From the NCBI GenBank assembly GCA_949710005.1, contig OX453285.1, forward strand, positions 22,528,503 through 22,592,502: a stretch of DNA of 64,000 bases, written 5' to 3'. This document shows, one piece after another, positions 7,601 to 21,890 of this stretch (the first letter of the stretch is position 1; each line of letters opens with the position of its first letter). The notes beneath the pieces were generated by a model. The model did not search any database, was not told the origin of the DNA, and saw only the letters and a list, made by a program, of their open reading frames with translations. Position numbers and translations under genes: made by a program. This stretch comes from Ricordea florida (Eukaryota; Cnidaria; Anthozoa; Corallimorpharia; Ricordeidae).

Positions 7601-10600
7601 ACACAAAGAAGTCATTTGGAAGTCATAACGCGGGGTGAGTGATCGGAGTTTTATCTATTCATTGATTTTTCCGCTGTTTGTTGGTTTTAAAAAACAATCA
7701 AATAGAACCTCACATTTATATAGCGCTTCCATGCAAATGCATTCCAACTGTAAAAAATAAAACAACAAATATTTAACTACGTTTCCGAAGCCAGTGGGCA
7801 GCTTCTCGCCGTGTTTCTTTCCAATTCCTCCTTCAGTTCCTCAACGAGCTACTCTATTCTTGCTCGAGAGAGCCAAAATTGTTCAATGACCTCGCAGTCA
7901 GCCATATCGGCTAGAAAGGGGCGTCTTTGGTAAGACCGTGGTCTTCGCGCTAAACAAAAAAGTTCGCCTCTGGCCGCCATTTTGTTAGTTTTGCAACATT
8001 TGCGACTTCCCGCTAACTTTACTGGAGGTCACGACCTCCTGTAAATTACCGGGAGAGTTACCGGACAAATTAACGGGAACGAAAATAAGGGGAGCTTCGA
8101 GAAACACCTGAAAAGTTTACGGGGACTTACCGGGTAACTTACCGGGAAACTTACCGGGCCCGATAATTTACCGGGTCTTTCGAGAAACGGGCCCCAGGCG
8201 CGAAGCGCGCGGGCCATAAATCCGAGAGGAAAAAAAGAGGATCCGTAACTTACAGTACAAACCGACAAAACGAGGTTTGTAAGATATTTATTACATCTCT
8301 GGAGATATTTTGGCGACCAAAACAAACTTTTAAATTTAGCGGGCCGTACAGTGAAGTACGGCCCGCTAAATTGACCAATCACAGCGCGCGTACTAACTGA
8401 GAGATATAATAAGACGCAGTACGTTTCTTTCGATTTCTGTAGAACCGCAACGTGACACGACCATTTTCCAAGTTTTACAGAGGACCAATGTCTAGCACAG
8501 TAAATTTACTAAGAAGTGGGAGCTGATAATCCGTTGCTAAGTTTCCGCTATTCTGTAGAAAAAGTCAAAGGAAGTAAAATAGGCCAACCACCAGATGCTA
8601 TCGGGAAAGAGCTTCGTATCAAGTTTTCAATTGGTGCCATCTTGAAAGTTTCCGTCCCGTGTTTGCTTAATCAACCCTTTTCCTCGGTTCTGTCCTCGTA
8701 TACCGGTACACAAGGGAATAACCATTGTATTTTCTTTGTTTAGGAGTCATTTTTTAGCTGTAATGTATTGTTTGGTCTTTTGTATCGGCTCTTGAGTACT
8801 GGTACACGAGGACAGAACCCTTTTCCTCCCAAACCTGATCTGAGTAGCAACTCTCGTAACTGAAAGCCAGACATTGGGTTAAAGGCTTGTTTGGAGAATG
8901 TTGTGTTGGATCAATTCATCATATTAGAGGTGACCCTTTTACTAATTCTCATCATCAGTTTCCTATAAAGTGTCCTGTTAATATCAGGAGAATTTCCAAG
9001 TTGGTCACTCCTGACAGTGATAGGGTTAAACTACTCAACGCCTCTAATCATACCACTGCTAAAATACAGTACTGCTCGGCAGATCCTTTGAGGACATCGA
9101 CTGAATCAAAGCAACACCTCGCTCTTAAAGTGCACCACAATCTCCCGGCCAGACCCTGTAGGACCCTATGATAGCTACAAAACTTTCAAGCAGAGACTAC
9201 AATCATGGACAAAAACGTTGAGACAATTTACCAAACCTCACGCTTTGTAACTAACAACAGAATTTTGTATTTGAACGAAAACATCTTTTTCATCTGAAAT
9301 CACCCCCTCCCCCCCCCCCAAAAAAGAAAAAAAATATGTTGCAAAACGCTTTGTGGATGTTCAGTTGTTTCCAACATTGAAAAAGGGGGGAGGGGAGGGT
9401 ACCTTTCACGAGAGAAGAGAGAACAGAATTTACACCAAGGAAAAAGGTTGGTAATTGTCATGTGTCTCAACAACTTTTGTCTATGATTGTCATGCCACTA
9501 CCAGACGTTCTGGTTTCATATGTCCCTTACCTGTCTAATGTTGTGATGTCTCTCTGTATTGTCCCACCACCACCAGACACAGTCTCCAGGATGAACGTTC
9601 AATATCTTTGGTGTGAATCCTTGATCATGGACTCGAACAGTGTAATGCTTCAGTTAAACAAAACAACAATAATAAACAACAACCTACTGAACAGTACTGT
9701 ACTGTGGTACTGTTTGTTTTACTATAAATTGTGGTTCTAACTTTTTCATCTGTGGATCAAACCATGCAGTGTGACCATTCTTTGTAAAGCTACTGAACAG
9801 TACTGTACTGTGGTACTGTTTGTTTTACTATACAGTGTGGTTCTAACTTTTTCATCTGTGGATCAAACCATGCAGTGTGACCATTCTTTGGAAAGCTGCT
9901 GCGTGATCAGTACTGTACTGTGGTACTGTTTGTTTTACTACACAGTGTGGTTCTAACTTTTTCATCTGTGGATCAAACCATGCAATGTGACCATTCTTTG
10001 TAAAGCTACTGAACAGTACTGTACTGTGGTACTGTTTCTTTTACTATACAGTGTGGTTCTATCTTTTTCATCTGTGGATCAAACCATGCAGTGTGACCAC
10101 TCTTTGTAAAGCTACTGAACAGTACTGTACTGTGGTACTGTTTGTTTTACTATACAGTGTGGTTCTAACTTTTTCATCTGTGGATCAAACCATGCAGTGT
10201 GACCATTCTTTGGAAAGCTGCTGCGTGATCAGTACTGTACTGTGGTACTGTTTGTTTTACTATACAGTGTGGTTCTAACTTTTTCATCTGTGGATCAAAC
10301 CATGCAGTGTGACCATTCTTTGGAAAGCTGCTGCGTGATCAGTACTGTACTGTGGTACTGTTTGTTTTACTATACAGTGTGGTTCTAACTTTTTCATCTG
10401 TGGATCAAACCATGCAGTGTGACCATTCTTTGTAAAGCTACTGAACAGTACTGTACTGTGGTACTGTTTGTTTTACTACACAGTGTGGTTCTAACTTTTT
10501 CATCTGTGGATCAAACCATGCAATGTGACCATTCTTTGTAAAGCTACTGAACAGTACTGTACTGTGGTACTGTTTCTTTTACTATACAGTGTGGTTCTAA

Positions 10601-19600: not shown

Positions 19601-21890
19601 GTTTGTTTTACTATACAGTGTGGTTCTATCTTTTTCATCTGTGGATCAAACCATGCAGTGTGACCATTCTTTGTAAAGCTACTGAACAGTACTGTACTGT
19701 GGTACTGTTTGTTTTACTATACAGTGTGGTTCTATCTTTTTCATCTGTGGATCAAACCATGCAGTGTGACCATTCTTTGTAAAGCTGCTGCGTTATCAGT
19801 ACTGTACTGTGGTACTGTTTGTTTTACTATACAGTGTGGTTCTATCTTTTTCATCTGTGGATCAAACCATGCAGTGTGACCATTCTTTGGAAAGCTGCTG
19901 CGTTATCAGTACTGTACTGTGGTACTGTTTGTTTTACTATACAGTGTGGTTCTATCTTTTTCATCTGTGGATCAAACCATGCAGTGTGACCATTCTTTGG
20001 AAAGCTACTGAACAGTACTGTACTGTGGTACTGTTTGTTTTACTATACAGTGTGGTTCTATCTTTTTCATCTGTGGATCAAACCATGCAGTGTGACCATT
20101 CTTTGTAAAGCTACTGAACAGTACTGTACTGTGGTACTGTTTGTTTTACTATGCAGTGTGGTTCTAACTTTTTCATCTGTGGATCAAACCATGCAGTGTG
20201 ACCATTCTTTGTAAAGCTACTGAACAGTACTGTACTGTGGTACTGTTTGTTTTACTATACAGTGTGGTTCTATCTTTTTCATCTGTGGATCAAACCATGC
20301 AGTGTGACCATTCTTTGTAAAGCTACTGAACAGTACTGTACTGTGGTACTGTTTGTTTTACTATACAGTGTGGTTCTATCTTTTTCATCTGTGGATCAAA
20401 CCATGCAGTGTGACCATTCTTTGTAAAGCTACTGAACAGTACTGTACTGTGGTACTGTTTGTTTTACTATACAGTGTGGTTCTATCTTTTTCATCTGTGG
20501 ATCAAACCATGCAGTGTGACCATTCTTTGTAAAGCTGCTGCGTTATCAGTACTGTACTGTGGTACTGTTTGTTTTACTATACAGTGTGGTTCTATCTTTT
20601 TCATCTGTGGATCAAACCATGCAGTGTGACCATTCTTTGGAAAGCTGCTGCGTTATCAGTACTGTACTGTGGTACTGTTTGTTTTACTATACAGTGTGGT
20701 TCTATCTTTTTCATCTGTGGATCAAACCATGCAGTGTGACCATTCTTTGTAAAGCTACTGAACAGTACTGTACTGTGGTACTGTTTGTTTTACTATACAG
20801 TGTGGTTCTATCTTTTTCATCTGTGGATCAAACCATGCAGTGTGACCATTCTTTGTAAAGCTACTGAACAGTACTGTACTGTGGTACTGTTTGTTTTACT
20901 ATGCAGTGTGGTTCTAACTTTTTCATCTGTGGATCAAACCATGCAGTGTGACCATTCTTTGTAAAGCTACTGAACAGTACTGTACTGTGGTACTGTTTGT
21001 TTTACTATGCAGTGTGGTTCTAACTTTTTCATCTGTGGATCAAACCATGCAGTGTGACCATTCTTTGTAAAGCTACTGAACAGTACTGTACTGTGGTACT
21101 GTTTGTTTTACTATGCAGTGTGGTTCTAACTTTTTCATCTGTGGATCAAACCATGCAGTGTGACCATTCTTTGTAAAGCTACTGAACAGTACTGTACTGT
21201 GGTACTGTTTGTTTTACTATGCAGTGTGGTTCTAACTTTTTCATCTGTGGATCAAACCATGCAGTGTGACCATTCTTTGTAAAGCTACTGAACAGTACTG
21301 TACTGTGGTAGTTATTGTTACCATTTTACAAACTGTAATTAAAGTGAGGTCGCCTACCTCTGTCCCTCTTTGTACCAAAATCGAACATAAGCTTGATGGT
21401 AATGATGCCATGTTGCTGTCTTGCAGCTGATATGAGAACATGCCTGTGCTTTCAAATTTGTGCGTTGCCAGCCCCAATGAATTTGCAAACTTCAGAAGAT
21501 GTGGTATGGTCTTGCACAAACAACCTTTAAGAGATAACTAAATCTAAATGTCATTACCTCCGCCAAGGAGGTTATGTTTTCACGCCTGTCTGTTTGTTTG
21601 TCTGTCTGTCTGTTAATCGTTTTACGCAAAAAACTAATCAACGGATTTGCACCAAATTTGGTGGAAAGGTCGCAAATATACCCAGGATCAATCGATTAAA
21701 ATTTGGGATTTATCCGGATTAAACTCCGGATCTCAGATCCAGATGAGTGTAATATCAGGTGTACATATGTGGCGGGGCGGAGGTATGCGCTCTACCGAGT
21801 ACCCTTCTAGTTTCACCTTGCATTTAGTTATGGTAAACATACGGTTTTGAGTTTTATTTGTTGATGCCGCTACAGCGAGTACAATTTTAG

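What the first reader, a model, noticed from the sequence alone, without database searches (positions are those of the whole stretch)
9684..21310. An intron that is ~99% satellite DNA
The intron between exons 14 and 15 runs 9648-21357 (11,710 bp) and the satellite array covers 9684-21310, leaving 47 bp on the donor side and 36 bp on the acceptor side. Both flanking exons clearly encode adjacent cupredoxin strands, so a satellite is being transcribed and spliced out of a protein-coding gene. Wall-to-wall occupancy suggests amplification bounded by the need to keep splice signals.
Basis: partly seen in the sequence, partly recalled or inferred. Interest (0 to 1): 0.9.

Follow-up and report, generated by a model that had tools for sequence, protein, structure and literature searches.

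The report
Intron filled by satellite DNA
In a gene for a protein built of repeated copper-protein-like domains, one 11.7-kilobase intron consists almost wholly of about 109 copies of a 106-base satellite repeat, a finely resolved further case of something best known from fruit-fly Y-chromosome genes.

Summary
Confirmed: array 9684-21310 (TRF 108.2 copies of a 106-bp unit) fills 99.3% of intron 9648-21357 of a minus-strand gene, leaving 36 and 47 bp. Seventeen exons, 37175 to the window edge, join into 524 codons without a stop, with cupredoxin-like domains on both sides, so one gene is very probable. No transcript could be checked. New: (1) a second array of the family (2094-5972) is 86.7% of intron 1521-5992 of the same gene, 20 bp from its donor but 573 bp from its acceptor. 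(2) Both intron positions and phases recur in other domains, in introns free of this satellite, so the introns are probably older than the satellite. (3) The arrays grew locally: array-specific variants, exact internal repeats of 1109 and 944 bp. (4) The transcribed strand has almost no strong splice decoys, while the other strand has 94 and 37 strong acceptors; this depends on the threshold, and 68 of 193 control tiles are as clean. 'Bounded by splice signals' is plausible, not shown. Closest known: satellite introns of Drosophila kl-3 and kl-5. A new member of a known kind.

The parts
9684..21310 (+). Satellite array A, about 109 units of 106/110 bp; unit written in + orientation, so its reverse complement is transcribed with the gene
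9648..21357 (-). Intron A, 11,710 bp, phase 0, 99.3% satellite
   Evidence: position equal to that of intron 77-1468 (compared by eye)
21358..21524 (-). Exon before array A, end of cupredoxin-like domain 4
9531..9647 (-). Exon after array A, start of cupredoxin-like domain 5
5993..6108 (-). Middle exon of domain 5
1521..5992 (-). Intron B, 4,472 bp, phase 2, 86.7% satellite
2094..5972 (+). Satellite array B, about 37 units, mostly 105 bp, same orientation as A
1469..1520 (-). Last exon of domain 5
77..1468 (-). Intron at the same position and phase as intron A, without this satellite (it holds a 21-bp array)
1..76 (-). Start of a further cupredoxin-like domain 6, cut by the window edge
34742..35818 (-). 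Intron in domain 1 at the same position and phase as intron B, without this satellite
21525..40310 (-). Remaining exons and introns of the gene, domains 1 to 4; the start at 40310 is uncertain
61871..62715 (-). Array C of the same satellite in the opposite orientation, outside the detected exons
56897..57087 (+). Short copy of the satellite, about two units with an internal deletion
45060..45188 (+). Short copy of the satellite
44697..44828 (+). Diverged short copy of the satellite

Best explanation
A 106-bp satellite that is dispersed in this region entered two older introns of a multi-domain cupredoxin-like gene and grew in place by unequal exchange and segmental duplication, until it formed 99% of one intron and 87% of another. 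The gene still reads through: the array is carried in the pre-mRNA and leaves with the intron, because donor and acceptor lie in short unique flanks and because, in this orientation, the transcribed strand of the unit offers almost no strong decoy splice sites and no AATAAA or ATTAAA. Shown: arrays, coordinates, open reading frame, recurrence of the intron positions in other domains, local homogenisation. Inferred: transcription, splicing, how the satellite first came in, and loss (or original shortness) of the non-satellite part of intron A.
For: Array and intron coordinates. 524 codons without a stop over 17 exons. Domain 5, assembled across one ordinary intron and intron B, matches PDB 5fc9 over residues 11-90, E 0.002. 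Domains 1 and 5 align with score 65 against a maximum of 34 in 500 shuffles and share two intron positions with equal phases, one of them intron B. Local growth: exact internal repeats of 1109 and 944 bp; the 110-bp type in 39 of 107 units of A, 0 of 36 of B, 0 of 6 of C; nearest neighbour only within the own array for 84 of 107 units of A and 26 of 36 of B. Decoys at the 25th-percentile threshold: transcribed strand 0 donors and 0 acceptors in A, 0 and 1 in B; opposite strand 94 and 37 acceptors.
Against: No RNA evidence and no homologous protein. Only the domain-6 boundary repeats the exact position of intron A; at domain 3 the intron is one base away in another phase, at domain 2 it is shifted by several residues, and at domain 4 there is none at that point (by eye). 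The decoy contrast depends on the threshold: with the laxest one, 163 donors and 275 acceptors appear on the transcribed strand of A, and 68 of 193 control tiles are as clean as the satellite at the 25th percentile. The weak poly(A) variant AGTAAA occurs 104 and 37 times on the transcribed strand.
Confidence: 0.75

Rival explanations
1. Misassembly: the arrays glue together exon sets of two or more cupredoxin paralogs, or their assembled length is wrong.
For: Exact repeats of up to 1109 bp inside the arrays are a known hazard for assembly; no reads were available to test it.
Against: Across both arrays the strand, the reading frame and the domain order continue, and domain 5 is completed only across array B. 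A false join between tandem paralogs could still look like this. The window holds no N.
Confidence: 0.12
2. The satellite made the intron: an insertion carried or created the splice sites, as introner elements do.
For: Only 83 bp of intron A are not satellite, which is less than the shortest other intron of the gene (662 bp).
Against: Intron A has the position and phase of intron 77-1468, and intron B those of intron 34742-35818; neither of these holds this satellite. The splice sites lie in unique flanks, not in the unit.
Confidence: 0.04
3. The gene is broken: transcripts end in or near array A, and the exons beyond it are remnants.
For: No RNA. Reading on from the exon before the array without splicing gives an open frame into the satellite (ORF 21244-21537).
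Against: The exons beyond the array have no stop and intact splice sites and complete a domain. The arrays hold no AATAAA or ATTAAA, while the 15 other introns hold 21 and 26 in 22,377 bp.
Confidence: 0.08
4. The arrays have a function in the gene: a transcription delay, a binding platform for proteins, or a length-dependent damper of expression.
For: Two introns of one gene hold the same satellite in the same orientation. In human CACNA1C, long alleles of an intronic array go with lower expression in fibroblasts and testis (PMC13131567, abstract).
Against: The same satellite also lies outside the detected exons in both orientations. One 321-nt stretch of its RNA folds no better than shuffles (z +1.59, 94 of 100 shuffles at least as stable). 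Two arrays share an orientation by chance half the time.
Confidence: 0.1

Closest known systems
Satellite-rich giant introns of Drosophila Y-linked genes kl-3 and kl-5 (PMC6508621, passages read)
   Same: Satellite arrays inside introns of a protein-coding gene that remains in use; the satellite-rich introns make up over 99% of the kl-3 locus.
   Different: There megabase introns, simple repeats such as AATAT, Y-linked, transcription and RNA-binding proteins shown; here 11.7 and 4.5 kb, a 106-bp unit, arrays sequenced through, nothing known of expression.
TRACT, the 30-bp intronic VNTR of human CACNA1C (PMC13131567, abstract and one section)
   Same: A kilobase-scale tandem array inside an intron, with array-specific unit variants and expansion through runs of identical units (here up to 3 in A and 5 in B).
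   Different: Unit length; population and expression data exist there, and they show no overt present-day instability. I did not see there what share of its intron it fills.
TCAST elements in introns of Tribolium castaneum (PMC3411249, passages read)
   Same: A satellite dispersed near and within genes, 29 of 68 elements in introns.
   Different: At most four units per place there (up to 1440 nt); about 109 and 37 units here.

Membership tests
Satellite-filled intron of a protein-coding gene (Drosophila Y-loop type) | Most of an intron is tandem satellite | tested here: met
   99.3% of intron A, 86.7% of intron B
Satellite-filled intron of a protein-coding gene (Drosophila Y-loop type) | Flanking exons belong to one coding frame | tested here: met
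   524 codons without a stop over 17 exons; no homologous protein to confirm the joins
Satellite-filled intron of a protein-coding gene (Drosophila Y-loop type) | Satellite transcribed and spliced out | not testable with these tools
   no RNA data
Satellite-filled intron of a protein-coding gene (Drosophila Y-loop type) | Megabase size | tested here: not met
   11.7 and 4.5 kb; so it works like the Y-loop introns at most, and is not one of the giant introns
Introner-type intron | Intron created by the inserted repeat, hence at a new position | tested here: not met
   both positions and phases recur in other domains without this satellite
Retrozyme or hammerhead-ribozyme tandem repeat | Ribozyme motif in the unit | tested here: not met
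   no Rfam match in the window at gathering scores or in 20000-21400 at E up to 5
Cupredoxin domain (of the host gene) | Sequence match to cupredoxin profiles or structures | tested here: met
   Pfam Cupredoxin_1 28.2 bits, cut-off 27, residues 72-102 of a 493-residue version; domain 5 to PDB 5fc9, E 0.002. But domain 1 alone is below the cut-off, domain 5 alone has no Pfam match, and the piece across array A matched nothing

The most novel reading that the evidence does not exclude
The satellite is an intron specialist: it persists and expands where its splice-quiet strand is the transcribed one, so that splicing filters its orientation relative to genes, and the array length in this gene varies between individuals and tunes how much full-length protein is made.
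Probability: 0.12. Interest if true: 0.7.

Novelty: new member of a known kind. Interest (0 to 1): 0.45.

Why it matters
It is a compact, fully sequenced case of an intron almost wholly made of a complex satellite, with introns free of that satellite at the same positions in sister domains of the same gene as built-in controls. That makes two questions testable at one locus: how close a satellite may grow to splice sites, and whether splicing selects the strand on which a satellite may sit in a gene.

Tried and rejected
My first gene model ended intron B at 2074 with a short exon and a stop, which made intron B look 99.0% satellite with 20 bp at each end. I rejected it: exon 1520-1469 has a better acceptor (8.3 against 7.3) and a donor, completes the domain and improves the PDB match from E 0.013 to 0.002. 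A short alternative exon at 2073 is not excluded. The decoy counts used other intron sets; one search replaces them, and the laxest-threshold count is kept as a result against my reading.

Known RNA family or ribozyme: none. RNA structure: none beyond chance in one 321-nt stretch. A transposon carrying the arrays: 400-bp flanks of the six places share only matches of 13-48 bp, apart from sequence counted twice because two places are neighbours; still, 4 of the 6 places (A, B, 45060, 56897) begin near the same point of the unit, CTGAACAG. Satellite elsewhere: 0 exact matches in viral contigs with a 31-base and a 21-base pattern and 0 in prokaryote genome contigs with a 30-base pattern; these collections are not of animals, so this says little. 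Protein relatives: none (E up to 0.001, 2749 candidates, E up to 10, 4877, E up to 10, 1474). Searches used the rejected last exon, one search also the uncertain first one. The organism was not identified; that the sequence looks like a stony coral's is recall, not a result.

Literature: searches. In the listings that I saw, no title or abstract start describes this satellite or this gene; the library lacks most subscription papers. PMC8226300 (passages) proved irrelevant.

Full report
Tandem Repeats Finder places one array at 9684-21310 with a 106-bp unit, 108.2 copies and 96% matches. The intron on the minus strand runs from donor 21357 to acceptor 9648, 11,710 bp, phase 0; the array takes 11,627 bp of it, 99.3%, leaving 47 bp at the donor and 36 bp at the acceptor.

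The gene. On the minus strand I joined 17 exons, from 37175 to the edge of the window, into 524 codons without a stop; the 16 introns between them begin with GT and end with AG. A likely first exon ends at 40133; its start is uncertain. The protein is a string of cupredoxin-like domains. Pfam Cupredoxin_1 scores 28.2 bits against a cut-off of 27 at residues 72-102 of a 493-residue version. Domain 1 alone reaches 20.7 bits, below the cut-off, and domain 5 alone has no Pfam match. Domain 5, spread over the exons 9647-9531, 6108-5993 and 1520-1469, matches the blue copper protein 5fc9 over residues 11-90 (E 0.002). The 96-residue piece that spans array A matched nothing in Pfam or the PDB, and no relative was found in three protein searches, so the join across array A has no outside support. 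It rests on strand, frame and domain order: the exon before the array ends domain 4 and the exon after it starts domain 5. This is good evidence, not proof, that both exon sets are one gene.

A second satellite intron. Array B, 2094-5972, is of the same family and orientation and lies in intron 1521-5992 (4,472 bp), of which it is 86.7%. It stops 20 bp from the donor but 573 bp from the acceptor. My first model put the acceptor at 2074 and was replaced. The other 15 introns of the model, the one after the uncertain first exon included, have a median of 1,093 bp (662-3,422). In them the unit found only one chance-level match, 13 bases with E 0.45.

The introns are probably older than the satellite. 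Domains 1 and 5 align with a score of 65, against a mean of 10.8 and a maximum of 34 in 500 shuffles. In that alignment both carry a phase-0 intron after NIIQ/NIRQ and a phase-2 intron that splits a serine codon after FTFI/FYFA. The second is intron B in domain 5 and a 1,077-bp intron without this satellite in domain 1. Intron A lies ten residues before the conserved glycine in phase 0, as does intron 77-1468 before domain 6 (1,392 bp); this comparison was made by eye, with 25 residues of domain 6. At the other boundaries the position is one base off (domain 3), shifted by several residues (domain 2) or without an intron at that point (domain 4). The satellite therefore most likely entered existing introns. 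As the counterparts are about 1 kb long and intron A keeps only 83 bp besides satellite, either intron A was short before or most of its old sequence was lost; I cannot tell which.

How the arrays grew. Array A has 34 distinct sequences among 107 complete units, array B 18 among 36, one of them 18 times; the longest exact repeat found within A is 1,109 bp and within B 944 bp. Some variants are array-specific: the 110-bp type makes up 39 of 107 units in A, 0 of 36 in B and 0 of 6 in C; a C at alignment column 85 is in 19 of 36 units of B and 0 of 107 of A. Others are shared: the one-base deletion typical of B is in 28 of 36 units of B and in 3 of 107 of A, and two unit sequences are identical in A and B. 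This fits a common source and later local growth by unequal exchange. Further copies lie at 44697-44828, 45060-45188, 56897-57087 and, in the other orientation, 61871-62715.

Why splicing may tolerate it. With scoring matrices from the other 15 introns and a threshold at the 25th percentile of their left-out scores, the transcribed strand of A holds 0 donors and 0 acceptors and that of B 0 and 1, whereas the opposite strand holds 94 and 37 acceptors and 0 and 1 donors. The strongest opposite-strand acceptors are of the form CTGTTTGTTTTACTATACAG|T. The 15 other introns have 102 donors and 85 acceptors in 21,477 bp on the transcribed strand. Against this: with the laxest threshold the transcribed strand of A shows 163 donors and 275 acceptors, and 68 of 193 control tiles of 136 bases are as clean at the 25th percentile. 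A clean unit is common; what matters is that a unit repeated a hundred times multiplies whatever it carries. Neither array has AATAAA or ATTAAA, but the weaker AGTAAA occurs 104 and 37 times on the transcribed strand. One 321-nt stretch of the RNA folds no better than shuffles. That AGTAAA is a weak signal, and what a decoy splice site does in a cell, is recalled knowledge.

What is known. Introns dominated by satellite are established in Drosophila: the satellite-rich introns of kl-3 make up over 99% of its locus and are transcribed (PMC6508621, passages), and larger introns of Y-linked genes are mis-spliced more often, in hybrids above all (PMC12965833, outline and one section). Human CACNA1C holds a 30-bp intronic array of 3-30+ kb; its long alleles go with lower expression, yet no overt present-day instability was found, so the recent growth seen here need not mean that lengths vary today (PMC13131567, abstract and one section). 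Beetle TCAST elements lie in introns, 29 of 68, with at most four units (PMC3411249, passages). The present case is a new member of a known kind, notable for near-total occupancy by a complex unit, two introns in one gene, and introns free of the satellite at the same positions as controls.

Noticed in passing
22922-23802: A different tandem array, 114-bp unit, 7.8 copies, makes up about half of another intron of the same gene (22242-23941). A similar single copy is visible at about 31587-31690 in intron 30739-31711, near its donor.
   Followed up: no
61871-62715, 56897-57087, 45060-45188, 44697-44828: Further copies of the 106-bp satellite outside the detected exons; the first in the opposite orientation.
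   Followed up: partly
454-924: A 21-bp tandem array, 22.3 copies, in intron 77-1468, the positional counterpart of intron A.
   Followed up: no
40936-41761: Arrays of a 16-bp unit in both orientations just upstream of the likely first exon.
   Followed up: no
57085-57130: Next to a short satellite copy lies a stretch that resembles a tRNA-derived SINE promoter box (recalled motif); ARAGORN found no tRNA in the window.
   Followed up: no
9684-21310: Each unit carries CAGTACTGTACTGTGGTACTG, with three GTAC and a near-perfect palindrome; 4 of the 6 places with the satellite begin just before it. It may be an amplification origin or an element end.
   Followed up: partly
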